From an uncultured Clostridia bacterium (lineage in GTDB: Bacteria; Bacillota; Clostridia; Oscillospirales; JAAYOS01), in contig CANRIN010000005.1 in NCBI GenBank assembly GCA_947630675.1, positions 1 to 55,707 on the forward strand: a stretch of 55,707 bases of DNA, read 5' to 3'. The notes beneath the pieces were generated by a model. That model saw only the letters and a list, made by a program, of their open reading frames with translations, made no database searches and was not told the origin of the DNA. This document shows, piece by piece, positions 19,428 to 37,165 of this stretch. Position 1 is the first letter of the stretch. Every line of letters begins with the position of its first letter. Both the position numbers and the translations under genes were made by a program.

Positions 19428-19471
19428 GTGATAGAATATAAACATAAAACAGCTTAAAAGGAGTGACTGCA

Positions 19472-20314
19472 ATGTACCTTGCACATCGTTCGGAGGACGG
19501 CAGAGAGCAGAGCATCCTGGAGCACGCCAAAAATGTCTCCGAGCTCTGCGCCGAATTCGCCGCGCCGTTCGGGGCGGAAGAGCTTGCAAAGCAGATCGGG
19601 CTTGCCCACGATATCGGGAAGTATTCGGAAAAATTCCAACGCCGCATCGGGGGAGAGAACGTTCAGGTCGACCATTCCACCGCAGGAGCGCAGGAGATAG
19701 TCAAGTATTCGGGATGGCCCGCCGCATACTGCGTTGCCGGTCACCACGGCGGTCTGCCGGACGGCGGCGGAAAAACGAGCGCTTCCGATGGCCCCACTCT
19801 CAGCGGACGCCTCAAACGCGAGGTGGAGCCGCACGGAGATTTCGCCGGAGAAATAGCGCTGGCGCCGGTTGGGGTCAGGCCGCCGAAGATGCTTGGTAGG
19901 GGAGGCTTTACGATGGCCTTCTGGATACGGATGCTTTTCTCCTGCCTTGTGGATGCGGACTATCTCGACACCGAAGCATTCATGCAGAAAAGACCGCCGC
20001 ACAGGGGCAGCGAGCTCACAACTGAGCAGCTGCGTGAAAAGCTGGATACATACGTCGCCCGCTGGGACGACCCCAAGTCCGAGCTGAACCGCGCCCGTTA
20101 CAACATCCTTCATGCCTGCATAGAGACGGGGGGAGAAGCAGGAGCCCGGGCTGTTCACTTTGACCGTACCCACCGGCGGCGGCAAGACCGTCTCATCGCT
20201 GGCGTTTGCTCTGCATCACGCAGCGGCGCACGAGAAAAAGAGGATAATATACGTCATCCCGTACACAAGCATCATCGAGCAGACCGCGGACAAATTTCGC
20301 GAAATTCTGGGTGA
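19472..20314 (+). CDS. cas3: cas3, HD nuclease part (frameshifted)
   Basis: Cas3 of type I-C degrades DNA recruited by Cascade. ATG 19472 is preceded by AAAAGGAG at a spacing of eight. The HD nuclease motifs are present: H18, H46-D47 (GLAHDIGK), H68 (VDHSTAG) and H91-H92 (GHHGG). Sense ends near residue 220 (ILHACIETG); the rest is out-of-frame coding of the helicase. A run of six G at 20128-20133 explains this: with five G the frame reads through to EKQEPGLFTLTVPTGGGKT, the usual Cas3 Walker A region, and the joined protein would be 720 residues, normal for I-C Cas3. As it stands, the product has the HD domain and a scrambled tail. It may be a pseudogene, a phase-variable allele or a sequencing error. 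Confidence 0.85.
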   Translation: MYLAHRSEDGREQSILEHAKNVSELCAEFAAPFGAEELAKQIGLAHDIGKYSEKFQRRIGGENVQVDHSTAGAQEIVKYSGWPAAYCVAGHHGGLPDGGGKTSASDGPTLSGRLKREVEPHGDFAGEIALAPVGVRPPKMLGRGGFTMAFWIRMLFSCLVDADYLDTEAFMQKRPPHRGSELTTEQLREKLDTYVARWDDPKSELNRARYNILHACIETGGEAGARAVHFDRTHRRRQDRLIAGVCSASRSGAREKEDNIRHPVHKHHRADRGQISRNSG

Positions 20315-21635
20315 AGATGCCGTGCTGGAGCACCACTCCAATGTGGATTTTGACGACGATGAGTCCGGCGCTCCGGACCCGAAGAAGGGGCGCAGTAAGC
20401 TCGCCGCCGAAAACTGGGATATGCCCGTAGTGGTGACAACGGCGGTACAGTTCTTCGAGTCGCTCTTTGCAAACAGGACTTCCCGGTGTAGGAAGCTGCA
20501 CAACCTCGCGGACAGCGTTATCATTTTCGATGAGGCGCAGACCATACCGCTTCCGTACCTCATGCCCTGCGTGCGGGCGATAGCGGAGCTCGTTGTGAAC
20601 TATGGGGCGTCCTGCGTCCTGTGTACCGCGACGCAGCCTGCGCTAGGCCCCGTGTTCACGGCTGTCTCGACGGAGCTTGCTCCGCGGGAGATCACGCCCG
20701 AAATTCCCATGAATGTATTCGTGCGCGTGCGCTACGAGCAGGTGGGCAGGCTGTCCGATGAAGAGCTGGCGGACAGGCTGAATGCTCACTGTCAGGCGCT
20801 CTGCATCGTAGGTACGCGCAAGCAGGCCCAAAAGGTGTTTGAATTGCTGGACAAGGACGGAAGCTTCCATCTTTCCACGCTTATGACCCCGGAGCACCGC
20901 AGGGCGGTCCTGGAGGAGGTCAGGACAAGGCTGAAGGACGGGCTTCCGTGCCGGGTGGTCGCGACGAGCCTCATTGAGGCGGGAGTGGACGTGGACTTCC
21001 CCGTGGTATATCGCGCCGAGGCGGGGCTGGATTCGGTCGTTCAGGCCGCCGGACGGTGCAATCGTGAGGGAAAGCGTCCCGCGGGCGACAGCTGCGTTTA
21101 CGTCTTCCAACCCGACAGCGCCTATACTGCGACCCTCCCGCACTCCATGAAGCGGCCTCTGGAGATAATGCGGTCCGTCACCCGCGACTGTCCCGCGCCG
21201 GACGCTCCGGAAACCATCGAGCGCTATTTCACCGCCCTGCGGCAATTCACCGGGGATGATGTCGACAGCAAACGCATAGTTCCGCAGTTTGAAAATGGTG
21301 TAGAGGATTTCAGCCGGCCATCCTTCCCGTTCGCCAAGGCAGCGCAGGAATTCCGGCTTATTGACAGCGATACCCGCGCGGTACTTGTTCCCTGCACGGA
21401 GGAGGCTGAGGCGCTTGCGGCCCGTTTGCTAAGGGGAGAGCGCAGCCGCGCCCTTTTGCGGAAGGCCGGCCAGTACTCGGTAAACGTCTATGAAGATCAC
21501 TTTAATGCCCTGAACAGTCGGGGCGCGTTGAAGCTGCTGGAGCAGGACCTGGCCGTTCTGACCGACCCGTCTCTGTACAGCAAAGAGACCGGGATGATCC
21601 TTCTGGCTGACGGCGGGGTGGGTATCTTCGCATAA
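20160..21635 (+). CDS. cas3: cas3, superfamily 2 helicase part (frameshifted)
   Basis: This frame carries the Cas3 helicase: TVPTGGGKT (motif I) at its start, IIFDEAQ (motif II), CTATQPA (motif III), VATSLIEAGVDVDFP (motif V) and QAAGRCNREG (motif VI), then the C-terminal domain to the stop at 21635. The only in-frame start near the boundary is TTG 20160, without a ribosome binding site and too late to include a whole helicase domain. It is therefore the back part of the gene starting at 19472, not an independent gene. All helicase motifs are intact, so a single-base correction in the G run would restore the enzyme. Confidence 0.85.
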   Translation: MTVPTGGGKTVSSLAFALHHAAAHEKKRIIYVIPYTSIIEQTADKFREILGEDAVLEHHSNVDFDDDESGAPDPKKGRSKLAAENWDMPVVVTTAVQFFESLFANRTSRCRKLHNLADSVIIFDEAQTIPLPYLMPCVRAIAELVVNYGASCVLCTATQPALGPVFTAVSTELAPREITPEIPMNVFVRVRYEQVGRLSDEELADRLNAHCQALCIVGTRKQAQKVFELLDKDGSFHLSTLMTPEHRRAVLEEVRTRLKDGLPCRVVATSLIEAGVDVDFPVVYRAEAGLDSVVQAAGRCNREGKRPAGDSCVYVFQPDSAYTATLPHSMKRPLEIMRSVTRDCPAPDAPETIERYFTALRQFTGDDVDSKRIVPQFENGVEDFSRPSFPFAKAAQEFRLIDSDTRAVLVPCTEEAEALAARLLRGERSRALLRKAGQYSVNVYEDHFNALNSRGALKLLEQDLAVLTDPSLYSKETGMILLADGGVGIFA

Positions 21636-21955: not shown

Positions 21956-22063
21956 ATGATGGTGGAGGCGAGGAGAATCGGCGGCCGGACCAACCGGCCG
22001 CCACCCCTCTTTGATATATTCCAAAAATATCCAAAACAGAAAAGCGAGGTGAAACGATCATGA
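21956..22063 (+). CDS. 35-codon leader ORF of the cas operon
   Basis: ATG 21956 follows the strongest ribosome binding site in the locus, AGAAAGGAGG, at a spacing of seven. The peptide begins MMVEARRIGGRTNRPPP and ends KYPKQKSEVKRS; it is very basic and Pro-rich, with no membrane segment. Its TGA (22061-22063) overlaps the cas5c ATG (22060) as ATGA, the classic arrangement for translational coupling. A 9-bp stem-loop lies inside the ORF (21980-22002). I recognise no family. It may be a leader peptide that sets Cas protein expression or a small functional protein. The overlap and the ribosome binding site are observed; the role is inference. Confidence 0.55.
   Translation: MMVEARRIGGRTNRPPPLFDIFQKYPKQKSEVKRS
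21980..22002 (+). promoter_or_regulatory. GC-rich stem-loop in the cas operon leader
   Basis: A perfect 9-bp stem, GGCGGCCGG (21980-21988) with CCGGCCGCC (21994-22002), encloses the loop ACCAA. It sits within the 35-codon ORF, 58 bases before the cas5c start. No T tract follows, so it is not a normal terminator. It could influence translation or be an RNA processing site; Cas5c itself cuts RNA near GC-rich hairpins. Function is speculation. Confidence 0.5.
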
Positions 22064-22713
22064 GCCAGGGAATCCAGGTGGAGGTGTGGGGCGACTACGC
22101 GCTCTTTACAAGACCGGAGCTGAAGGTCGAACGTGTCAGCTACGACGTTATGACGCCGTCCGCTGCGCGCGGGATAGTGGAGGCTATTTACTGGCACCCC
22201 GGGCTGCGATGGCACATCGACCGCGTCCACGTCATGAGCCCCATTTCCTTCACGAACATTCGGCGAAACGAAGTGAAGGACAAGATATCTGCCGCAAATG
22301 TGCGCTCGGTCATGAACGGAACGAACCGTCCGCTCGCCATCTACACCGGCGAGAGCATCCAGCAGCGGGCGTCCATGGTGCTGACAAATGTCCGATATGT
22401 GATCGACGCGCACTTCACGATGACCGACAAGGCCAATCCGACGGACAGCGAGGGCAAGTTCATCGACATAGCCCGCCGCCGTCTCGAGCGCGGACAGTGC
22501 TACCACCAGCCGTGCTTCGGGTGCCGGGAGTTCCCCGCAAACTTCCGGGCGTGGCAGGGGGGAGCGGTACCGGCCATCCCGGAGACACGGCCGCTCGGGA
22601 TAATGCTCTACGACATGGACTATTCAAACCCTCGGGACATCCAACCGATGTTCTTTATGGCCGAACTGACGAACGGTGTTCTGGAGGTAGCGGGGAAGGA
22701 GGTGTTGAGGTGA
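22060..22713 (+). CDS. cas5c: Cas5c (Cas5d), crRNA-processing Cascade subunit
   Basis: The 217-residue product matches type I-C Cas5 from its first residues (QVEVWGDYALFTRPELKVERVSYDVMTPSAARGI) and the internal VMSPISFTNIRRNEV, IQQRASMVLTNVRYVI and FFMAELTNGVLEV segments. In type I-C systems Cas5 replaces Cas6: it cuts the pre-crRNA at the 3' base of the repeat hairpin and stays on the crRNA 5' handle. ATG 22060 overlaps the stop of the leader ORF and has GAGGTG upstream. It is the first of six tightly packed cas genes, and its TGA overlaps the cas8c start. Length is normal. Confidence 0.93.
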   Translation: MSQGIQVEVWGDYALFTRPELKVERVSYDVMTPSAARGIVEAIYWHPGLRWHIDRVHVMSPISFTNIRRNEVKDKISAANVRSVMNGTNRPLAIYTGESIQQRASMVLTNVRYVIDAHFTMTDKANPTDSEGKFIDIARRRLERGQCYHQPCFGCREFPANFRAWQGGAVPAIPETRPLGIMLYDMDYSNPRDIQPMFFMAELTNGVLEVAGKEVLR

Positions 22714-24473
22714 TCTTACAGGCGCTTTGCAATTATTATGATGCCCTTGCAAAGAGAGGCGATATAACGCCCCCCGGCTGGAGCATGGTGAAGGTGTCGT
22801 TTGCCCTGAACTTGGATGAGCAGGGAAACCTGCATGAGATCTTTCCCATGAAAGTCATGGCGGACGGAGGAAAAAAGGAAGTTCCGCAGTCCGTGCAGGT
22901 ACCGGAGCAGGTGAAGAAAGCCTCCGGCGTCGTCTCCAACTTTCTGTGTGACAACAGTTCCTACTTCCTCGGCATTGACAACAAGGGCAAGCCGGAGCGG
23001 ACAGTGAAGTGCTTCGAAGCGGCAAAGGCTCTGCACCATGAGACACTTGAGAATGCGGCGAGCCCCGCCGCCCGCGCGGTGCTTGCGTTCTTTGACAGCT
23101 GGCGGCCGGAGAGTGCGGCGGAGGACCCTGCGCTTGCTAAGTATCTGGACGAGATAATGAAGGGCGCAAACCTTATCTTTTCCGTGAACAGCATGTTTGT
23201 CCATGAGGATGCCGCCGTGCGCACCGCGTGGGAGGATCACCGCGCCGCAGTGTCCGAGGGCTCCGCGGTCGGCAGATGTCTGGTGACGGGGCGGCTCGGC
23301 TCTGTCGCCCGTCTCCATCCGGCTATTAAGGGAGTAAGGGACTCGCAGCCCACCGGCGCTTCGCTCGTGTCCTTCAACGCCCCTGCTTTTGAGTCCTACG
23401 GACACGAGGGCAAGGAGACGGGTCAGGGAATGAATTCCCCCGTATCCGAGGAGGCCGCGTTCAAATACGGCGCTGTGCTGAACCGCCTCATAGCGGACCG
23501 GGAGCACGTCCAATACATCGGGGATACCGCCGTGGTCTACTGGGCGGAGGACGCCGAGCCGAAGTATCAGGATGTGTTTTCCTGCGCCATGTTCGGCGGG
23601 CAATCGGAGATAATCACCAATACGGATCTGAGCGACGCTGTGACGAACCTCGTTCGCGGAAACCCGGTGGACGTGAACGGTATACCTCTTGACCCGGAGA
23701 ACAACTTCTATGTGCTGGGGCTCGCGCCGAACGCCGCGAGGCTGAGCGTGCGGTTCTTCCTGCAAAATACGTTTGGCGGGATGCTTGCGAACGTGCAGGC
23801 TCACTACGACCGGCTGAATATCGTCAAGCCGGCCTATATAGCAAACGGATCGCTGCCGCTGTGGAAGCTGCTGAACGAAACGGTCAACCTGAACAGCCGG
23901 GACAAAAAAGCGTCCCCGCCGATGGCGGGCGCGGTCGTCCGTGCCGTGCTGACCGACGGACCGTATCCCGTTTCGCTTATGGAGCAGACGATGCTGCGCA
24001 TCCGCGCAGAACAAAATGTGACCTATGGCCGTGCGGCCATTCTGAAAGCGTTTTTCCTGAAAAACAGCGAATTCAAAGTACCGGAGGGGGCATTAAGAGT
24101 GGAACTCAACGAAGAAAGCAGTCATCTTCCTTATGTGCTGGGCAGGTTGTTTGCCGTTTTGGAGCGGGTGCAGTCCACTGCAAATCCCGGCATCAACGCC
24201 ACGATAAAGGACAAGTATTTCAACAGTGCGTGCGCTACGCCGGCAACGATTTTTCCGCTGCTGACAAAGCTTTCCCAGAGCCACCTGAGAAAACTGGACG
24301 GCGGGCTGAAAACCTATTTTGAGAAAATGATCGGAGACCTGGAGGGCCGCATCCACGAGACTCTGCCCGCCCGTATGCCGCTCGCGGATCAAGGCAGCTT
24401 CCATCTGGGCTATTACCATCAGGTCCAAAAATTCTTTGAGAAGAAGGATAAAGGAGGAAATGAAAATGTCTGA
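22710..24473 (+). CDS. cas8c: Cas8c, large subunit of type I-C Cascade
   Basis: The start is GTG 22710, with AAGGAGG seven bases upstream and a GTGA overlap with cas5c; the frame is open further upstream, but that part shadows cas5c. The 587-residue protein begins MILQALCNYYDALAKRGDI, the typical Csd1/Cas8c N-terminus, and contains GRCLVTGRLGSVARLHPAIKG, LVSFNAPAFESYG and DTAVVYWAEDAEP. The family recognises the PAM and joins Cascade to Cas3. The last 124 codons form an internal Cas11c gene (see 24099). The stop TGA (24471-24473) overlaps the cas7c start. Length and motif order are normal. Confidence 0.93.
   Translation: MILQALCNYYDALAKRGDITPPGWSMVKVSFALNLDEQGNLHEIFPMKVMADGGKKEVPQSVQVPEQVKKASGVVSNFLCDNSSYFLGIDNKGKPERTVKCFEAAKALHHETLENAASPAARAVLAFFDSWRPESAAEDPALAKYLDEIMKGANLIFSVNSMFVHEDAAVRTAWEDHRAAVSEGSAVGRCLVTGRLGSVARLHPAIKGVRDSQPTGASLVSFNAPAFESYGHEGKETGQGMNSPVSEEAAFKYGAVLNRLIADREHVQYIGDTAVVYWAEDAEPKYQDVFSCAMFGGQSEIITNTDLSDAVTNLVRGNPVDVNGIPLDPENNFYVLGLAPNAARLSVRFFLQNTFGGMLANVQAHYDRLNIVKPAYIANGSLPLWKLLNETVNLNSRDKKASPPMAGAVVRAVLTDGPYPVSLMEQTMLRIRAEQNVTYGRAAILKAFFLKNSEFKVPEGALRVELNEESSHLPYVLGRLFAVLERVQSTANPGINATIKDKYFNSACATPATIFPLLTKLSQSHLRKLDGGLKTYFEKMIGDLEGRIHETLPARMPLADQGSFHLGYYHQVQKFFEKKDKGGNENV
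24099..24473 (+). CDS. cas11c: Cas11c small subunit, internal start inside cas8c
   Basis: Inside cas8c, in the same frame, GTG 24099 is preceded by GGAGGGGG (24083-24090) at a spacing of eight, a strong ribosome binding site in the middle of a gene. The 124-residue product starts MELNEESSHLPYVLGRLFAV and is mostly helical, as expected for the Cas11 small subunit. Internal translation of Cas11 from the end of cas8 is established for type I-C systems; here the site and length fit that model. It would line the belly of Cascade beside the Cas7 backbone. Expression in this organism is inferred. Confidence 0.7.
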   Translation: MELNEESSHLPYVLGRLFAVLERVQSTANPGINATIKDKYFNSACATPATIFPLLTKLSQSHLRKLDGGLKTYFEKMIGDLEGRIHETLPARMPLADQGSFHLGYYHQVQKFFEKKDKGGNENV

Positions 24474-25386
24474 ACCTATCAAGAACCGCTACGAATTCGT
24501 TGTCCTGTTTGACGTGGAGAACGGCAACCCGAACGGAGACCCTGACGCGGGCAACATGCCCCGCGTCGACCCGGAGACCGGCTACGGACTTGTCACCGAC
24601 GTCTGCCTCAAGCGGAAGATCCGCAACTTCGTGGAGACCGCGAAGGAGGGCGAACCCGGCTACGGGATATACATCAAGGACGGCACGCCCCTGAATACCA
24701 GCGACAACGCCGGATTTTCTTCCGTGGGGATAGACGGCGCCGCGTCGATGAAGCCGGAGGACCTCAAGAAGGCTGTCAAAAAGAAGGGCGAGGAAGGCGT
24801 CGATGTGGACAGTCAGGTGAAGGAGTTCATGTGTGAAAACTTCTTCGACATCCGCACCTTCGGCGCGGTGATGACCACGATGGTCAAGGGAAATCTCAAC
24901 TGCGGACAGATACGGGGACCGGTCCAGCTCGGGTTTGCCAGGAGCGTCGACCCCATCGTGCCCCAGGAGGTCACCATCACCCGCGTCGCCATCACGACCG
25001 AGGCAGATGCGGAGAAGAAGGGCACCGAGATGGGCCGCAAGTATATCGTTCCCTACGCCCTCTACCGCTGCGAGGGCTACGTCTCCGCGAACCTGGCGAG
25101 GAAGGTCACCGGGTTTTCGGAGGAGGATTTGAAGCTTCTGTGGGAGGCCATCCTCAACATGTTCGAGCATGACCGCTCCGCCGCGCGCGGAAAGATGGCG
25201 GTCCGGGAGCTTATCATCTTCAAGCACGATACCGAGCTGGGCTGCGCTCCGGCGTGGAAGCTCTTTGACACGGTCACCGTGGCGCATAAGGACGGCGTGA
25301 TAAGCCCCCGTGCATACAGCGACTACACCGTCACTGTGGACGAGACGGCCCTGCCCGCCGGCGTTGCATGTACCCGTATGGGGTGA
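24466..25386 (+). CDS. cas7c: Cas7c (Csd2), backbone subunit of Cascade
   Basis: ATG 24466 (MSEPIKNRYEFVVLFDVENG) is spaced eight bases from AAGGAGG; ATG 24460 is too close. The 306-residue protein has the Cas7/Csd2 signature NGNPNGDPDAGNMPRVD, the FFDIRTFGAVM segment and the GNLNCGQIRGPVQLGFARSVDP loop. Several copies wrap the crRNA spacer in Cascade. It overlaps cas8c by eight bases and cas4 by 19. Length is normal for the family. Confidence 0.93.
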   Translation: MSEPIKNRYEFVVLFDVENGNPNGDPDAGNMPRVDPETGYGLVTDVCLKRKIRNFVETAKEGEPGYGIYIKDGTPLNTSDNAGFSSVGIDGAASMKPEDLKKAVKKKGEEGVDVDSQVKEFMCENFFDIRTFGAVMTTMVKGNLNCGQIRGPVQLGFARSVDPIVPQEVTITRVAITTEADAEKKGTEMGRKYIVPYALYRCEGYVSANLARKVTGFSEEDLKLLWEAILNMFEHDRSAARGKMAVRELIIFKHDTELGCAPAWKLFDTVTVAHKDGVISPRAYSDYTVTVDETALPAGVACTRMG

Positions 25387-26057
25387 CCGTGCTTCCGGAG
25401 GATGAGTACATTGCCCTGTCGGGCATCCAACACTTTGCATTCTGCCGCCGGCAGTGGGCGCTCATCCACATCGAACAGCAGTGGGCGGAAAATCTGCGAA
25501 CGGTGGAGGGCGATCTGCTCCACCGGCGCGCCCACGACGAGACCCAAACCGAGAGCCGCGGCGACACGTTGATCGTCCGCGGCCTCCGGGTCGTCTCTCA
25601 CCGTCTGAAGATACAGGGGGTGTGCGACGTGGTGGAGTTTCATCGGGACCCGAACGGAGTGACGCTCGCCGGCAGGGAGGGGAAGTGGAGCCCGTATCCC
25701 GTGGAGTACAAGCGCGGCAAGCCAAAGCCGTTTGATGCGGACGAGCTCCAACTCTGCGCTCAAGCCGTCTGCCTTGAGGAGATGCTGCTCTGCTCCATTC
25801 CGGAAGGCAGTCTGTTTTACGGCGAACCCCGGCGGCGGACAAGGGTGGCGTTGGATGCGGCGCTCAGGGAGCGGGTGGAGAATATGCTTTCGGAGATGTA
25901 CGACCTCTACTCAAGGGGACATACTCCAAAGGCAGCGCCGGGCAAAGGCTGCGCCGCCTGCTCGCTGAAGGAGCTGTGCCTTCCCCGATTGCAAAAGAAT
26001 CAGTCTGCGGACGCCTATATCCGCGCCCATCTGCCGGGAGAGGAGGAGTCGCCGTGA
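25368..26057 (+). CDS. cas4: Cas4, adaptation nuclease with Fe-S cluster
   Basis: Cas4 trims prespacers at the PAM side before Cas1-Cas2 inserts them. The 229-residue protein has C26 (HFAFCRRQWAL), a RecB-type core (GVCDVVEF, PVEYKRGKPK) and the C-terminal cluster GCAACSLKELC, so the four Cys expected for a 4Fe-4S cluster are present. I used ATG 25368, which overlaps cas7c; GTG 25383 is an alternative. Neither has a good ribosome binding site, so coupling to cas7c translation is likely. Its stop overlaps the cas1 start as GTGA. Confidence 0.9.
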   Translation: MYPYGVTVLPEDEYIALSGIQHFAFCRRQWALIHIEQQWAENLRTVEGDLLHRRAHDETQTESRGDTLIVRGLRVVSHRLKIQGVCDVVEFHRDPNGVTLAGREGKWSPYPVEYKRGKPKPFDADELQLCAQAVCLEEMLLCSIPEGSLFYGEPRRRTRVALDAALRERVENMLSEMYDLYSRGHTPKAAPGKGCAACSLKELCLPRLQKNQSADAYIRAHLPGEEESP

Positions 26058-27085
26058 GAAAATTTCTGAACACCCTGTTCGTCCTCAGCGAGGACAGCTA
26101 TCTTGCTCTCGAAGGGGAGACGGTGACCGTTCTCGCGGAGGATGAGAAGAGGGGGCAGTTTCCTCTCCACACACTGGAAAACATCATCTGCTTTTCATAT
26201 AAGGGAGCAAGTCCGGCTCTGATGGGCAAATGCGCCCGGGAGGGGATAAACCTCTGCTTCTTCACCCCGAGGGGACGCTTTCTTGCACGGGTGAGCGGTG
26301 AAAACAACGGCAATGTTCTGCTGCGCCGAACGCAGTACCGTATGGCGGACGATGACGCTCAAAGCTGCAGTGCGGCAAAGAATTTTATCTTCGGCAAGGT
26401 TTACAACAGCCGGTGGAGCATAGAGCGCACCAGGCGTGACCATGCGCTGCGGGTGAACGACGAGGCCCTCGGCCGTGCCTCAGCACTGCTCGCGGAAAGC
26501 CTGCCGCGTCTGCTGGAAGCAGCCTCGCCGGACGAGCTTCGCGGACTTGAAGGGGAGTCAGCCGCGGTCTACTTTGGGGCTTTTGATGCGCTCATACTGA
26601 ATCAGCGGGAGACTTTCGGCTTTACCGGCCGCTCCCGCCGACCGCCTACGGATCCGACGAATGCGATGCTGTCATTTGCATATTCTCTGCTTTCCAATGC
26701 CTGCGCCGGGGCGCTGGAGGGCGTGGGGCTGGACGCATATGTGGGATTTCTCCACCGGGACAGACCGGGGCGTGCCTCTCTTGCGCTGGACCTGATGGAG
26801 GAGCTGCGGCCGCTGTTTGCGGACCGGTTCGTGCTGACGCTCATCAACAACCGAACGATACGCTCGGAGCATTTTGAGCGTCAGCCCGGCGGTGCGGTGC
26901 TGCTGAACGATGAGGGGCGAAAGATATTTCTCTCCTCTTGGCAGAAGCGGCTTGCGGAGCCGATAACCCATCCGTTCCTGAAGGAAAAGCTGGCATGGGG
27001 TCTGGTGCCCTATGTTCAGGCTCTGCTGCTTGCCCGGTATCTCCGGGGAGATATGGACGGCTATCCGCCGTTCTTGTGGAAGTGA
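26054..27085 (+). CDS. cas1: Cas1 integrase (type I-C)
   Basis: GTG 26054 (MRKFLNTLFVLSEDSYLALEG) follows GGAGGAG and overlaps the cas4 stop; upstream in-frame ATGs fall inside cas4. The 343-residue protein has the Cas1 core: a Glu in GESAAVYFGAFD, the His in VGFLHRDRPGRASLALDL and the acidic stretch of LDLMEELRPLF. Cas1 with Cas2 integrates prespacers at the leader end of the array. Length and motifs are normal. Confidence 0.93.
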   Translation: MRKFLNTLFVLSEDSYLALEGETVTVLAEDEKRGQFPLHTLENIICFSYKGASPALMGKCAREGINLCFFTPRGRFLARVSGENNGNVLLRRTQYRMADDDAQSCSAAKNFIFGKVYNSRWSIERTRRDHALRVNDEALGRASALLAESLPRLLEAASPDELRGLEGESAAVYFGAFDALILNQRETFGFTGRSRRPPTDPTNAMLSFAYSLLSNACAGALEGVGLDAYVGFLHRDRPGRASLALDLMEELRPLFADRFVLTLINNRTIRSEHFERQPGGAVLLNDEGRKIFLSSWQKRLAEPITHPFLKEKLAWGLVPYVQALLLARYLRGDMDGYPPFLWK

Positions 27086-27094
27086 GGCGGTTTT

Positions 27095-27385
27095 GTGCTG
27101 GTGCTTATCACATACGATGTCAACACGGAGGACGCCGCGGGGAGAAGACGGCTGCGGCAGGTGGCAAAGCAGTGCGTCAATTACGGTCAGCGGGTGCAGA
27201 ACTCGGTGTTTGAATGTCTGGTGGACCCGTCGCAGTACAAGCTGCTTCAGGCAAAGCTGTTGGAGGTCATTGACCCGGAGAAGGACAGTCTGAGGTTCTA
27301 TCACCTGGGAAATAAATATCAGGGCAGGATCGAACACTTCGGCGCCAAAGCGTCATACGAGCCGGAAGGGATCCTTCTCATATAG
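27095..27385 (+). CDS. cas2: Cas2, adaptation complex subunit
   Basis: The 96-residue ferredoxin-fold protein begins MLVLITYDVNTED (first strand with the conserved Asp) and contains RRLRQVAKQCVNYGQRVQNSVFEC, typical for I-C Cas2. It bridges the Cas1 dimers. The start is GTG 27095, nine bases after cas1, with only a weak ribosome binding site (GAGGCGG). It is the last cas gene, 172 bases before the first repeat. Confidence 0.93.
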   Translation: MLVLITYDVNTEDAAGRRRLRQVAKQCVNYGQRVQNSVFECLVDPSQYKLLQAKLLEVIDPEKDSLRFYHLGNKYQGRIEHFGAKASYEPEGILLI

Positions 27386-27557
27386 CGGTGCGAAGGGCGA
27401 GCACACATCAGAAGGCGGGTGGTTCGCACCGCTTCTGAAGGGAGAAAAGCGCTCGCCGAAGGGAAAAAAGAGCACTTTTTTCGGTTTTGGTTTTTAGGTA
27501 TGCAAAGTTTTTGCAAACCGAAGAAAATTCCTTAGGGAATTTTTGTACAGGTTTGCT
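27386..27557 (+). promoter_or_regulatory. CRISPR leader
   Basis: This 172-base stretch lies between cas2 and the first repeat; its second half is A/T-rich. It holds two mutually exclusive stems: AGCGGTGCGAA (27384-27394) with TTCGCACCGCT (27423-27433), and TCAGAAGGCGGGTG (27409-27422) with CACCGCTTCTGA (27427-27438). A further hairpin (AAAAAAG/CTTTTTT, about 27464-27481) and the palindromic AAAATTCC-TTA-GGGAATTTT close to the first repeat follow. The orientation is supported by the clean repeats here and the decayed repeats at the far end. Confidence 0.7.
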
Positions 27558-30500
27558 GTCGCGCCCCGCACGGGGCGCGTGGGTTGAAATAGGTCTTGCA
27601 AGGCCGTCAGCCGTTCGTTCGGGCGTCGCGCCCCGCACGGGGCGCGTGGGTTGAAATACCGATGCCGCGAGCGAAGCGGTGTAATCAACAGGTCGCGCCC
27701 CGCACGGGGCGCGTGGGTTGAAATTGTACGCTCTGGATATTATTGAGCGCGCCGCTTACGTCGCGCCCCGCACGGGGCGCGTGGGTTGAAATAACGGCAT
27801 TGCGAGCCTTGCACTTCCGCTCGCGGGCAGTCGCGCCCCGCACGGGGCGCGTGGGTTGAAATAGTGGATTTTACAGCGCATTGAGTACAACGTCGGGTCG
27901 CGCCCCGCACGGGGCGCGTGGGTTGAAATCCCTACCTCTCCAATATCGCCTCTCTGTACGTCAAGGTCGCGCCCCGCACGGGGCGCGTGGGTTGAAATCC
28001 TTTTTGTCGGTGAAGTGCATGGGGCCTTTGCCGGTCGCGCCCCGCACGGGGCGCGTGGGTTGAAATTCGATGAACAGACCGCCACCGCGAAGCGCACGGA
28101 CGTCGCGCCCCGCACGGGGCGCGTGGGTTGAAATCACGGGTTAGGAGCGCTGCGTCAAAGCACAGCGGTCGCGCCCCGCACGGGGCGCGTGGGTTGAAAT
28201 TGGACGAACAGACCGCCACCGCAAAGCGCACGGGTCGCGCCCCGCACGGGGCGCGTGGGTTGAAATTCGCTCTTTACCGGGGACAATTCGCTTGACAAGG
28301 TCGCGCCCCGCACGGGGCGCGTGGGTTGAAATTCCCTCAACGCTTAGAGGGAGGCACGATATTTAGTCGCGCCCCGCACGGGGCGCGTGGGTTGAAATAT
28401 GGGTCTTGCTGTCCGCATCGCCCTCGCCCTCGTCGCGCCCCGCACGGGGCGCGTGGGTTGAAATCCCCACGTCGTTACCGTCTACAACGTGGCGACGGAG
28501 TCGCGCCCCGCACGGGGCGCGTGGGTTGAAATACGTCGGGCAGAAGCTGACGGCATTCGCGGACAAGTCGCGCCCCGCACGGGGCGCGTGGGTTGAAATT
28601 TATTCGGGCGGCGCGTCTTGCTGGAGGGCGCAGTCGCGCCCCGCACGGGGCGCGTGGGTTGAAATAAGCTGTACAACGCGGCGGCGACAAGCGCGGAGGG
28701 TCGCGCCCCGCACGGGGCGCGTGGGTTGAAATCGCTTCGGACAAGCCCGCAGCGCGGTTTGCGGCGTCGCGCCCCGCACGGGGCGCGTGGGTTGAAATAT
28801 CACGGATATGCCGGTCTCGGTAAACTCCGTGAGAGTCGCGCCCCGCACGGGGCGCGTGGGTTGAAATTTATGTCAAGCCAGATACGATTGACAAAGAAAA
28901 GTCGCGCCCCGCACGGGGCGCGTGGGTTGAAATTTATGTCAAGCCAGATACGATTGACAAAGAAAAAGTCGCGCCCCGCACGGGGCGCGTGGGTTGAAAT
29001 TCCGACGCTCGCCTTGGCGTAACCGCTCCATTGCGGTCGCGCCCCGCACGGGGCGCGTGGGTTGAAATCGCCGCACGTCGCACTCGATAAGGTACAGCTC
29101 TTCCTGTCGCGCCCCGCACGGGGCGCGTGGGTTGAAATCCGAACGGCCCCGGCATGGGCGCGTTCGCCATCGGTCGCGCCCCGCACGGGGCGCGTGGGTT
29201 GAAATGACGGTGTGCCGAAGACGATAACGGTCGGGGAAGAGTCGCGCCCCGCACGGGGCGCGTGGGTTGAAATTTGAAATGCGGCGCGAATTCCTCAAGT
29301 TCTTCGCCGTCGCGCCCCGCACGGGGCGCGTGGGTTGAAATCAGGCAATCGCCAGAATTAAGAAGAAAACAGACCGTCGCGCCCCGCACGGGGCGCGTGG
29401 GTTGAAATTTAATTCTGGCGATTGCCTGGAAAAAGCTGCCGTGTCGCGCCCCGCACGGGGCGCGTGGGTTGAAATTCGACGCGGAGCACCCAGTAGCGGT
29501 CTTCCGCCGGTCGCGCCCCGCACGGGGCGCGTGGGTTGAAATCACTCGATACGGAGGTTTTCGTCGCAGTAATTCGGTCGCGCCCCGCACGGGGCGCGTG
29601 GGTTGAAATCGCTAACTGCTTGCCGAACTTGTCAAGCGAATTGGTCGCGCCCCGCACGGGGCGCGTGGGTTGAAATACGCGCTCGACAAAAAGCAGGAGG
29701 AACAGCAGGCGTCGCGCCCCGCACGGGGCGCGTGGGTTGAAATTGTATCCACTCCGGCACCGCGCCGAAATCGTAATGTCGCGCCCCGCACGGGGCGCGT
29801 GGGTTGAAATTGCGCATTTGGGTGCTCGAAACATAGACGGTCCCGTCGCGCCCCGCACGGGGCGCGTGGGTTGAAATTATCCGGCAAATGCGAGCGGCGA
29901 GAGCCCGTTTGGTCGCGCCCCGCACGGGGCGCGTGGGTTGAAATCCGCCACGAGCGGCAAGGCCTTCGGTGACAGGAGTCGCGCCCCGCACGGGGCGCGT
30001 GGGTTGAAATAACCTGTTGGGGAAATTCGGGCACGCGTTTACACCGAGTCGCGCCCCGCACGGGGCGCGTGGGTTGAAATAGATAGTCTGCCCTCGGACC
30101 GCCGGACACGGACGTCGCGCCCCGCACGGGGCGCGTGGGTTGAAATCCGCTATCTGCTTGACGGTGCTCGACAGCTTGAGGTCGCGCCCCGCACGGGGCG
30201 CGTGGGTTGAAATTAAAAAACTATTGACTTACGCAGATATACGTAGTGTCGCGCCCCGCACGGGGCGCGTGGGTTGAAATTCGCCGTTGGCCGTCCGCAT
30301 ATCGCAACGCCGCGTCGCGCCCCGCACGGGGCGCGTGGGTTGAAATTCCGTCCGTTACCACGACCTGCACGGCGATATGAGTCGCGCCCCGCACGGGGCG
30401 CGTGGGTTGAAATAGAATAGCACAAACCACCTCCCCCAAGGAGGTGGCGTCGCGCCCCGCACGGGGCGCGTGGGTTGAAATACTAAACTCCCCGTTGAGA

Positions 30501-32769
30501 CTGTCAACTGTCGTCGTCGCGCCCCGCACGGGGCGCGTGGGTTGAAATGCGATGTTCGTCCCGCGTTCGCGGCTCCGCGAAGTCGCGCCCCGCACGGGGC
30601 GCGTGGGTTGAAATACCCACGCCGCGAGCTCCGCGCGCTGTGTCGCCGTCGCGCCCCGCACGGGGCGCGTGGGTTGAAATAAAAATATCGGCGCTATAAG
30701 CATCCAAAACATAGTCGCGCCCCGCACGGGGCGCGTGGGTTGAAATCCAATCATTCATAAGGCCGGCGCTGACCTCCTGGTCGCGCCCCGCACGGGGCGC
30801 GTGGGTTGAAATTGCGACGTAAGAGCAGCCGCCGCGCTTTCCGACGGTCGCGCCCCGCACGGGGCGCGTGGGTTGAAATCGTGACGGCGTACGGTACTTC
30901 GGGCGGCACCGGGTCGCGCCCCGCACGGGGCGCGTGGGTTGAAATAGGTCGTTCAACTCCTTCTGAACGTCCGGCAGCTGTCGCGCCCCGCACGGGGCGC
31001 GTGGGTTGAAATAAACTCATATACCGCTGTAAGCCGGGCGGAAACGCGTCGCGCCCCGCACGGGGCGCGTGGGTTGAAATAGCAGGTGCAATAAAATACT
31101 CTCGCTTGCGTTCTCGTCGCGCCCCGCACGGGGCGCGTGGGTTGAAATGCGGATTACGGCATTACGCGACTCTCCGGGCGCGTCGCGCCCCGCACGGGGC
31201 GCGTGGGTTGAAATACCGTGTACAACGGCAAGGATGGCGCGGATGGTGCAGTCGCGCCCCGCACGGGGCGCGTGGGTTGAAATATTGCCTTTGAGGCTTC
31301 AAACCAATGGTCATCTGCGTCGCGCCCCGCACGGGGCGCGTGGGTTGAAATCCCTTCGCGGATTACGTCAAGCTCGACAAAGGCGTCGCGCCCCGCACGG
31401 GGCGCGTGGGTTGAAATACGGCATCCGCCCCGTCCATGCCGCTCGCGCGCACGTCGCGCCCCGCACGGGGCGCGTGGGTTGAAATCATCACTTTGAATCG
31501 TCTCCCTTTGCACTTTTACGTCGCGCCCCGCACGGGGCGCGTGGGTTGAAATACGATTCAGACGATGGCAATGGAAAGGAAAACGGTCGCGCCCCGCACG
31601 GGGCGCGTGGGTTGAAATGAGAGGTGGCGACAGTGGCCATTGACTGGCTGAAGTCGCGCCCCGCACGGGGCGCGTGGGTTGAAATACACTCCACTTGCCC
31701 TTACCTCCCGGCGCATGATAGGTCGCGCCCCGCACGGGGCGCGTGGGTTGAAATATAGACGTCCCGCTGTCACTCATCACGAACCAGCAGTCGCGCCCCG
31801 CACGGGGCGCGTGGGTTGAAATGTCTGCTCCATCGTATGGAACACAACGATGAGGGTCGCGCCCCGCACGGGGCGCGTGGGTTGAAATTGAATGCTGACG
31901 TACACAGTCAAATCGTCCTCTGGTCGCGCCCCGCACGGGGCGCGTGGGTTGAAATACCCACGCCGTGTAATCGTGATTGTTGATAATAAGGTCGCGCCTC
32001 GCACGGGGCGCGTGGGTTGAAATTCAAACATGTGTTGATATCTTGGGGTAATATTGCGGTCGCGCCCCGCACGGGGCGCGTGGGTTGAAATGTCGCGGGT
32101 CTCGGCCTTGATGGCAGCGGCGCGGTCGCGCCCCGCACGGGGCGCGTGGGTTGAAATATTATAAGTGAGTAAGTCGATGCGAATGCAGTCAGTCGCGCCC
32201 CGCACGGGGCGCGTGGGTTGAAATACTGTGCTCTCGAGTAGGTCCCTCGCCCGTTCGAGAGTCGCGCCCCGCACGGGGCGCGTGGGTTGAAATCTATTTC
32301 TCCCTCGGAGTCGCCCAGCCGGACGAGTCGCGCCCCGCACGGGGCGCGTGGGTTGAAATTGTCCTCGGGAGCGGTGCAGTACGTCAACTCACCGTCAGTC
32401 GCGCCCCGCACGGGGCGCGTGGGTTGAAATTACTACCAACCCGGCAGCTTCCAACTCGGCAATTAGTCGCGCCCCGCACGGGGCGCGTGGGTTGAAATAT
32501 CCGTCGCCAGGTCGGCTAGGCTCGCCACGTCACGTCGCGCCCCGCACGGGGCGCGTGGGTTGAAATCAGAAGTTCTCGAGCGCCGCCGAGAAGCAGAAGG
32601 GCAGTCGCGCCCCGCACGGGGCGCGTGGGTTGAAATTTCTGCTGGTTTTCGTACTGCTTCTCGAGGACGGGTCGCGCCCCGCACAGGGCGCGTGGGTTGA
32701 AATAGGACTACCTCGACTATGGGCGTCGGCTCGGGATGTCGCGCCCCGCACGGGGCGCGTGGGTTAAAT
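27558..32769 (+). CRISPR. Type I-C CRISPR array, 78 repeats and 77 spacers
   Basis: The 33-base repeat begins GTCGCGCCCCGCAC and ends GCGTGGGTTGAAAT. Its hairpin pairs GCGCCCC with GGGGCGC, the normal substrate of Cas5c. I counted 78 starts from 27558 to 32738, with spacers of 33 to 38 bases. Nearly all repeats are identical. The three variants (C to T in the repeat at 31991, G to A in the repeat at 32671, one base lost in the last repeat at 32738) are all at the far end, which fixes the leader at 27.4 kb. Notable spacers: an overlapping opposite-strand pair (29342-29375 and 29409-29442), a diverged pair (28067-28101 and 28201-28233), a near-duplicate pair (28868-28900 and 28934-28967) and a palindromic spacer (30414-30448). 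The length points to long activity. Confidence 0.98.
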
Positions 32770-32839
32770 TGCTACCCCCGGATTCAGTGGTGACGACGGG
32801 TATGAGAACGCTATGAACGCCAGAAACAGCGCTATGTAA
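32768..32839 (+). pseudogene. 3' remnant of an unknown gene fused to the last CRISPR repeat
   Basis: Directly after the last repeat an open frame reads ATPGFSGDDGYENAMNARNS up to TAA 32837-32839, with a stop (TAA, 32765) inside the repeat. No start lies upstream. The next gene has its ribosome binding site overlapping this stop (TAAGGAGG), as expected in a phage- or plasmid-like operon. I read it as the tail of a gene cut off at the repeat junction. Confidence 0.4.
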
Positions 32840-32851
32840 GGAGGCAAGCGT

Positions 32852-33109
32852 ATGAGCAAAGAGAAGATACCCACGTTAGAGGACTGGAAAAAGTATATCT
32901 ACGACGATTTCATAAAGGACCGCGGAGCCTGCATAAAGGCCAACGGGGTTAGTGACGAAGAGGTACAAAGATACCTTTTCGAGGACGGCTACGTCGAGCG
33001 TATGTATGAGAGGGCGAAAAAGGATTACGAGGCCGAGAAAATCCCGATAGGCGTTTTCAAAATCGGCCGCCCTTCGGCAATCGCATACGACCTTGAAATG
33101 TCGTTCTAA
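32852..33109 (+). CDS. Small unknown protein inside the array gap (85 aa)
   Basis: ATG 32852 has AAGGAGG upstream. The protein (MSKEKIPTLEDWKKYIYDDF...) is charged, probably helical, with no signal or membrane segment and one Cys. Base composition is visibly more A/T-rich than the cas and flanking genes. It is the first of three genes in a 943-base segment lying where a spacer should be. I recognise no family. Size, packing and composition suggest a phage or plasmid origin (inference). Confidence 0.65.
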   Translation: MSKEKIPTLEDWKKYIYDDFIKDRGACIKANGVSDEEVQRYLFEDGYVERMYERAKKDYEAEKIPIGVFKIGRPSAIAYDLEMSF

Positions 33110-33138
33110 GCAGGCCAAAGCATGACAGGGAGACAGTA

Positions 33139-33354
33139 ATGGCTAAGAAAATCAGTTTGGATGAATTCAAAGAGCAGGTGATAGAGTACCTGCTGATGAA
33201 CTACAATACAGGAAAGACCGAAGAAGAGTTAAGAGAAATCGTTAACGACGATTACTTTGCCGACGACGTACAAAGCGGCTATGATGACGCACATCGTTGG
33301 GGCCTAGACCAAGAGGTCTATCATGTGGCCCACACTATCAACATGTGCATATAA
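33139..33354 (+). CDS. Small acidic unknown protein inside the array gap (71 aa)
   Basis: ATG 33139 lies 29 bases after the previous gene, with GGGAG upstream. The acidic, probably helical protein (MAKKISLDEFKEQVIEYLL..., ending AHTINMCI) has no recognisable domain. Like its neighbours it is A/T-richer than the locus. Small acidic proteins of this kind are frequent in phage accessory operons, including some anti-CRISPR operons, but nothing here proves such a role. Confidence 0.6.
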   Translation: MAKKISLDEFKEQVIEYLLMNYNTGKTEEELREIVNDDYFADDVQSGYDDAHRWGLDQEVYHVAHTINMCI

Positions 33355-33383
33355 GCGCAGTCCGTAGCAAAGGGTGATGCCCT

Positions 33384-33740
33384 ATGAAGAGAACAAAATA
33401 CCAACACAAAGCGGTACTGCACATCCCGCAACAGGCGTGGGTAGACGGCGAGCTCGTCGACCTCGACCTCACAGAAGCTCTGGAAAAGCTGTCGGAAAAC
33501 CTTGAAGCGGCAGGGATTACGAGCTACTACGAGACACAGGCCACGGGCCACTACAAGGGGCGCAGTTACCCGGAGTTGCTGCTGACGATTTTCGGGACAG
33601 CGGAGACCTCCGTCGCCGTGAACGTCTTTATGCTCTGGTACGGGGCAAACCGCGATACTCTTCGGCAAGAGGCATTTGCTTACGAGCTGGACGGAGAGCT
33701 GTTCGTATATCAGTCATCTCCACCCGGGGACGCGGATTGA
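33384..33740 (+). CDS. Unknown protein whose 3' end runs into a CRISPR repeat (118 aa)
   Basis: ATG 33384 follows AAAGGGTGAT. The protein (MKRTKYQHKAVLHIPQQAW...) has alternating strand and helix patterns and no motif I know. Its last nine codons (SSPPGDAD and stop) lie in a degenerate CRISPR repeat beginning at 33713; the stop TGA is the TGA of the repeat end ATTGAAAT. The original C-terminus may therefore be lost. Together with the 5'-truncated remnant at 32768, both edges of the segment look cut. Confidence 0.6.
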   Translation: MKRTKYQHKAVLHIPQQAWVDGELVDLDLTEALEKLSENLEAAGITSYYETQATGHYKGRSYPELLLTIFGTAETSVAVNVFMLWYGANRDTLRQEAFAYELDGELFVYQSSPPGDAD

Positions 33741-34017
33741 AATAGCGTCGTCTCGATGATCTTGTAGGCGTTGATACGGGTCGCGCCCCACACGGAGCGG
33801 GGTGCGTGGGTTGAAATGGGAGCGGCGGGCTGAAGCTGCAAATCGCCAATGTCGCGCCCCGCGCGGGCGCGTGGGTTGAAATCGCTCCGTCGAGCGTCGC
33901 ACACGGTGTGCCAATTGTCGCGCCCCGCACGGGGCGCGTGGGTTGAAATGGGAAGCGGTCCACAAAGGGCAGGATGATGTTGCGTCGCGCCCCACACAGG
34001 GACGTGCGGGTTGAAAC
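33713..34017 (+). CRISPR. Decayed tail of the I-C array, five repeats and four spacers
   Basis: Repeats lie at 33713-33743 (divergent, TCTCC/GGGGA stem and ATTGAAAT end), 33780-33817 (five extra bases in the loop), 33851-33882 (one base short), 33917-33949 (perfect consensus) and 33984-34017 (divergent, ending GAAAC). Spacers are 33 to 36 bases. Orientation equals that of the main array, so this is probably its oldest part, separated by the 943-base gene-bearing segment. Confidence 0.85.
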
Positions 34018-36928: not shown

Positions 36929-37165
36929 ATTTCAACCCACGCACCCCTCGCAGGGTGCGACATCGATGGGCGCAGTAGTCGCACACCCCTCGGTATTTCA
37001 ATCCACGCGCCCGGTGTGGGGCGCGACGTCTTGCCCGCAATGTCGGCGATGACGCTGCCGGGATTTCAACCCACGCGCGCCGTACGGCGCGCGAACTTAA
37101 TACCTTATGAATCAGTTGCAGGAACAGTTGCTATTTCAACCCACGCGCCCCGTGCGGGGCGCGGC
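36929..37165 (-). CRISPR. Orphan I-C array on the minus strand, four repeats and three spacers
   Basis: Read on the minus strand, repeats at 37165-37133, 37096-37063, 37027-36995 and 36961-36929 all end in GTGG(G/A)TTGAAAT, with spacers of 33 to 36 bases. The stems differ but stay paired: GCGCCCC/GGGGCGC, GCGCGCC/GGCGCGC, GCGCCC/GGGCGC and GCACCCT/GGGGTGC. No leader or cas gene is next to it; the first repeat begins five bases beyond the stop of the membrane protein gene at 37170. The 36781-36928 stretch beside it shows no gene. Confidence 0.85.

What the first reader, a model, noticed from the sequence alone, without database searches (positions are those of the whole stretch)
29342..29442. 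Two neighbouring spacers overlap on opposite strands and both reveal a TTC PAM
The spacers at 29342-29375 and 29409-29442 share a 20-base reverse-complement overlap (CAGGCAATCGCCAGAATTAA). Merged, they rebuild a 48-base target. In it, the bases directly before the first protospacer are TTC (from the reverse complement of the second spacer), and the bases directly before the second protospacer, on the other strand, are also TTC (from the first spacer). The array alone therefore shows the PAM expected for type I-C. Consecutive acquisition from both strands of one site is typical of primed adaptation, though two naive events cannot be excluded.
Basis: partly seen in the sequence, partly recalled or inferred. 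Interest (0 to 1): 0.8.

Follow-up and report, generated by a model that had tools for sequence, protein, structure and literature searches.

The report
Overlapping opposite-strand CRISPR spacers reveal PAM
Two neighbouring entries in a gut bacterium's CRISPR memory were cut from opposite strands of the same 48 bases of an unidentified invader, and together they show, without the invader's genome, that the system picks targets next to TTC; this is ordinary for this CRISPR type and does not by itself prove primed adaptation.

Summary
S26 (29342-29375) and S27 (29409-29442) share a 20-nt reverse-complement overlap at their 5' ends and merge into 48 nt. Each shows TTC directly before the other's protospacer. 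Chance is negligible: the longest match in 20 shuffles was 14 nt, and TTC at both flanks by chance is about 2e-4. The array (78 repeats, 77 spacers) follows a type I-C operon cas3-5-8c-7-4-1-2. The TTC PAM holds up independently. Spacer S50 has a 31/34 match in a human-faecal phage fragment with TTC directly upstream. In 36 other type I-C arrays I found two more head-to-head pairs, so 6 of 6 revealed flanks are TTC.

The primed-adaptation reading is compatible but unproven. Opposite-strand overlaps occur in 7 of 14 arrays of at least 50 spacers. They sit closer in the array than chance (p about 0.005), but only this pair of nine is adjacent. Overlapping spacers and primed uptake in type I-C were already reported in Legionella (PMC5071653), without enrichment near the priming site. 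The only cas3 in this assembly is split by a frameshift. No target was found in the phage, plasmid, viral-contig or related-genome searches. Verdict: a new member of a known kind, of modest interest.

The parts
29342..29375 (+). spacer S26 (counted from the leader, first = S0)
29409..29442 (+). spacer S27; its reverse complement overlaps S26 by 20 nt; the older of the two if insertion is at the leader
29342..29361 (+). 20-nt shared segment in S26 (reverse complement at 29409-29428)
29362..29364 (+). GAA in S26 = TTC on the other strand, the PAM of S27's protospacer
29429..29431 (+). GAA in S27 = TTC on the other strand, the PAM of S26's protospacer
27558..32770 (+). CRISPR array, 78 repeats (33 nt, GTCGCGCCCCGCACGGGGCGCGTGGGTTGAAAT) and 77 spacers; degenerate repeats at the far end fix the polarity
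27386..27557 (+). AT-rich leader between cas2 and the first repeat (inferred from position and composition)
28267..28299 (+). spacer S10; its 3' end overlaps the reverse complement of S30 by 16 nt
29610..29643 (+). spacer S30, opposite-strand partner of S10 (tail to tail)
28868..28900 (+). spacer S19, same protospacer as S20 but 33 nt
28934..28967 (+). spacer S20, same protospacer as S19 but 34 nt (one more A at the 3' end)
28067..28101 (+). spacer S7, same register as S9 with 3 differences
28201..28233 (+). spacer S9, variant of S7; the 3 differences are synonymous in one frame if a PAM C precedes (LDEQTATAKRT)
   Evidence: reading frame by inspection
30946..30979 (+). spacer S50; 31/34 match to phage fragment MT838701.1 with TTC directly 5' of the protospacer
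19463..20314 (+). cas3, HD part; frame broken near the G run at 20129-20134
20160..21635 (+). cas3, helicase part, other frame
22060..22713 (+). cas5 (PF09704)
22725..24473 (+). cas8c/csd1 (PF09709), the type I-C signature
24436..25386 (+). cas7 (PF05107)
25368..26057 (+). cas4 (PF01930)
26075..27085 (+). cas1 (PF01867)
27095..27385 (+). cas2 (PF09827)

Best explanation
[quoted passage not shown] In each case the adaptation complex (Cas4-Cas1-Cas2) cut exactly next to a TTC PAM (GAA on the complementary strand) and inserted the fragment in the matching orientation at the leader end. Two TTC motifs happen to face each other around a 20-bp core, so each spacer records the other's PAM. Shown: the shared target, the opposite strands, the two TTC flanks and the I-C operon. 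Inferred: that S27 came first, that the source was one phage or phage lineage met within a short time, and whether acquisition was helped by an existing spacer (primed) or naive, which I leave open.
For: Exact overlap with both flanks TTC. Complete I-C gene set. The same geometry with TTC on both sides recurs in two unrelated I-C arrays, L028 S2/S20 (21 nt) and L106 S125/S151 (24 nt), so 6 of 6 flanks are TTC. An external protospacer for S50 has TTC. All 21 exact same-protospacer pairs of unequal length found in I-C arrays keep the PAM-side end and vary at the other, as expected when Cas4-Cas1-Cas2 cuts precisely at the PAM (PMC6519985). Opposite-strand pairs are closer in arrays than random order gives (9 pairs, p about 0.005).
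Against: The target was not found in IMG/VR, INPHARED phages, plasmids or related genomes, so the 48-mer is reconstructed, not observed. No result separates primed from naive acquisition. cas3 is frameshifted in this assembly.
Confidence: 0.88

Rival explanations
1. Primed adaptation (a more specific version of the best explanation): S27, or an older imperfect spacer, partly matched a returning escape variant; Cascade and Cas3 released local fragments and S26 was taken next from the opposite strand beside the primed site.
For: S26 and S27 are neighbours. Related spacers cluster in array order (window pairs p about 0.0003; nine opposite-strand pairs p about 0.005). In type I-F, primed spacers cluster near the primed site on both strands, and opposite-orientation ones lie on its PAM side (PMC4117759), which is the geometry here. 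Natural priming was proposed for overlapping I-C spacers in Legionella (PMC5071653).
Against: The only direct I-C priming data I could read show no proximity enrichment and a mild same-strand preference (PMC5071653). Head-to-head (3) and tail-to-tail (6) pairs show no single preferred side. Only one of nine pairs is adjacent. cas3 is broken in this assembly.
Confidence: 0.4
2. Independent naive acquisitions (the other specific version): the host met the same phage population repeatedly and sampled TTC sites at random or at hot spots; two fell on the same site by chance.
For: If all 77 spacers came from one 40-kb genome, about 1.5 opposite-strand overlaps would be expected. Half of the large arrays hold one. 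Same-register re-acquisitions (length variants and diverged variants) are even commoner.
Against: Real arrays draw on many invaders, which lowers the expectation; adjacency of a given pair by chance is 76/2926 = 2.6%; related spacers cluster in order.
Confidence: 0.45
3. Artefact: assembly error or recombination within the array.
For: The window comes from a fragmented 107-contig genome, and repeats invite misassembly.
Against: Each spacer has 14 bases absent from the other, and both boundaries fall exactly at TTC. Duplication or inversion cannot create that, and the pattern recurs in other genomes.
Confidence: 0.02

Closest known systems
Type I-C CRISPR-Cas of Legionella pneumophila Toronto-2005 (PMC5071653)
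   Same: TTC/GAA PAM; two pairs of spacers target overlapping regions of one element, and independently acquired spacers hit the same protospacer; priming proposed as the cause
   Different: There the target element (LME-1) is known and mismatches of the older spacers could be scored; here the target is unknown and the PAM comes from the array alone
Type I-C Cas4-Cas1-Cas2 adaptation complex (PMC6519985)
   Same: Precise PAM-side cut; consistent with fixed PAM-side ends and variable far ends seen here
   Different: In-vitro biochemistry; here only sequence traces
Type I-F priming in Pectobacterium (PMC4117759)
   Same: New spacers from both strands, close to the primed site
   Different: Different subtype, GG PAM, Cas2-3 fusion; experimentally induced

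Membership tests
Type I-C CRISPR-Cas | cas8c (csd1) with cas5, cas7, cas3, cas4, cas1, cas2 in one operon | tested here: met
   Pfam hits over cut-off for Cas5d, Csd1, Cas7, Cas4, Cas1, Cas2, DEAD and Cas3 C-terminal domains, and for the general HD domain; the specific Cas3_HD model is just under its cut-off
Type I-C CRISPR-Cas | 32-33-nt GTCGC...TTGAAAY repeat next to cas2, mostly 33-37-nt spacers | tested here: met
   same repeat type in relatives found by Cas1
Type I-C CRISPR-Cas | TTC PAM 5' of the protospacer | tested here: met
   both flanks of the reconstructed target; S50 protospacer in MT838701.1; two more head-to-head pairs
Type I-C CRISPR-Cas | intact Cas3 effector (needed for activity; not needed to assign the subtype) | tested here: inconclusive
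   HD and helicase parts lie in different frames here, in one frame in L026-L031; no other Cas3-like match over cut-off in the genome; a sequencing or assembly error is not excluded
Primed adaptation (as the process that made the pair) | an older spacer with an imperfect match near the new protospacer | not testable with these tools
   target not found
Primed adaptation (as the process that made the pair) | new spacers clustered in time and place relative to an older one | tested here: inconclusive
   array-order clustering p about 0.005 for nine opposite-strand pairs, but repeated infection by the same phage gives the same sign
Primed adaptation (as the process that made the pair) | dependence on Cas3/Cascade | not testable with these tools
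   needs genetics

The most novel reading that the evidence does not exclude
Opposite-strand overlapping pairs in type I-C arrays are traces of coupled uptake, in which one interference-generated local fragment pool feeds both strands of the same few dozen bases into the array, so that arrays alone can date and map priming events and give the PAM without any known target.
Probability: 0.15. Interest if true: 0.45.

Novelty: new member of a known kind. Interest (0 to 1): 0.28.

Why it matters
It shows a usable trick: spacers that overlap head to head reveal the PAM from the array alone, which helps for uncultured hosts whose phages are unknown. Applied to 37 type I-C arrays it gave TTC in all six cases. 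It also gives a small natural data set on how I-C systems resample the same sites. It does not change what is known about the PAM or about priming.

Tried and rejected
Looked for the target as the exact 20-mer in IMG/VR and within 2 mismatches in the 10 genomes of the family; as 48-mer blastn in phages and plasmids (only chance-level partial matches); as codon-degenerate patterns in both plausible frames in IMG/VR; and as all 77 spacers at once in phages and 295 genomes of the order. None found it. Degenerate patterns for the S10/S30 target, the S7/S9 target and the 20-mer of L028's pair also gave nothing. About 40 spacers of relatives L027-L029 against phages: no match. My first repeat pattern had the wrong spacing and missed even the window's own array; it was corrected. 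Rejected: array duplication or inversion as the source of the pair, because each spacer has unique ends bounded by TTC. Rejected: the idea that the last repeat base is PAM-derived here, since the repeat ends in T while the PAM ends in C.

Full report
What is there. The window holds a type I-C CRISPR-Cas locus: cas3 (in two frames), cas5, cas8c, cas7, cas4, cas1 and cas2, an AT-rich leader, then 78 repeats and 77 spacers from 27558 to 32770. Degenerate repeats at the far end and the leader beside cas2 fix the polarity, so low spacer numbers are newest (inference from known leader-end insertion). The closest relatives found through Cas1 (82-95% identical) are from rabbit gut ('Lapin') Oscillospiraceae and Clostridia genomes.

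The observation. S26 (29342-29375) and S27 (29409-29442) overlap by 20 nt on opposite strands at their 5' ends. Merged they give 48 nt, and TTC lies directly before both protospacers. Among all 2926 spacer pairs of this array, letter-shuffled spacers never gave more than 14 shared bases in 20 trials. TTC makes up 1.5% of trinucleotides in the spacers, so both flanks being TTC by chance is about 2e-4. The 20-mer occurs nowhere else in the genome.

More of the same in this array. S10 and S30 overlap by 16 nt tail to tail on opposite strands (PAMs hidden). S19 and S20 are the same protospacer cut at 33 and 34 nt; slippage in the A run could also explain this pair. S7 and S9 are the same protospacer from diverged invaders: three differences, all synonymous in the frame LDEQTATAKRT if a C precedes, which a TTC PAM supplies (frame read by eye). 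Three of these four related pairs lie within two positions of each other (permutation p about 0.0003).

PAM, independently. Spacer S50 matches a phage fragment from human faeces, MT838701.1, in 31 of 34 bases with TTC directly upstream. A PAM-blind scan of IMG/VR for that site returned 12 contigs. Of the three with four mismatches, two have TTC and one TTA; more distant ones vary. TTC is the canonical I-C PAM (PMC8482600; PMC5071653).

Comparison with other arrays. From 36 other I-C arrays (Cas1 relatives; repeat pattern; 1599 spacers in all with the window) I compared all spacers. There are nine opposite-strand overlaps, all within a single array: three head to head (window S26/S27, L028 S2/S20, L106 S125/S151) and six tail to tail. 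All six flanks revealed by the three head-to-head pairs are TTC. Four same-strand partial overlaps, two of which share one site, show TTC, TTC, CTC (across a mismatch) and TTA. Of 14 arrays with at least 50 spacers, 7 hold an opposite-strand pair. So the finding is a regular feature of I-C arrays, and the PAM trick works repeatedly.

Primed or not. Opposite-strand pairs are closer in the array than random order (geometric mean distance 7.8, p about 0.005), but distances are 1, 2, 5, 6, 7, 18, 20, 26 and 26; only the given pair is consecutive. Re-infection by the same phage lineage would give such clustering too. In type I-F, priming does produce both-strand spacers near the primed site, with opposite-orientation ones on its PAM side, as here (PMC4117759). 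In the type I-C data I could read, primed spacers showed a mild same-strand preference and no proximity enrichment (PMC5071653). The same paper already reports overlapping I-C spacers and proposes natural priming. A later dedicated I-C priming paper, known to me from memory, was not held in the library. I put priming and repeated naive sampling at about equal odds.

Mechanistic trace. In 21 of 21 exact same-protospacer pairs of unequal length in these arrays, the PAM-side end is fixed and the far end varies (lengths 32 to 37 nt). Pairs with one-base shifts at the PAM side occur only together with sequence differences. This agrees with precise PAM-side cutting by Cas4-Cas1-Cas2 (PMC6519985).

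Caveats. The target was not found anywhere searched. cas3 is split here by a frameshift near a G run at 20129-20134, while L026-L031 carry it in one frame; no other Cas3-like match over cut-off exists in the genome. If real, interference and priming would be off now, though the pair lies 26 positions from the leader and is older than the newest spacers. The arrays compared were chosen by Cas1 similarity and repeat pattern, not at random, and L106 contributes many of the repeated-acquisition pairs.

Noticed in passing
window 20129-20134 (cas3, 19463-21635): cas3 is split into two frames near a G run; relatives L026-L031 carry both parts in one frame. Could be a real inactivation or an assembly error.
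   Followed up: partly
window 32771-33720: About 950 bp with three small ORFs (85, 71, 118 aa) sits between the last good repeat and degenerate repeats at the old end of the array, where a spacer would be; absent from 9 related genomes and without convincing Pfam, PHROG or phage matches. Possibly captured or inserted foreign DNA.
   Followed up: partly
window 33744-33779; L029 10275-10311: A relic spacer in the degenerate tail resembles the second-last spacer of relative L029 (Cas1 92% identical), suggesting shared old spacers or a shared recurrent target.
   Followed up: no
window 36929-37165: A second, tiny and degenerate array of four repeats of the same kind in inverted orientation.
   Followed up: no
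L060, L062, L070, L023: Phage contigs carrying the S50 protospacer family with TTC; MT838701.1 (L023) also encodes portal-like and minor head-like proteins by eye.
   Followed up: partly
L025 7878-11308: In the closest Cas1 relative (95%) only the end of cas8c plus cas7, cas4, cas1, cas2 are found; cas3 and cas5 are missing upstream, where a 1971-aa ORF lies.
   Followed up: no
L106 (179 spacers), L042, L059, L032: Frequent re-acquisition of the same protospacer with the PAM-side end fixed and 1-3 nt variation at the far end.
   Followed up: partly
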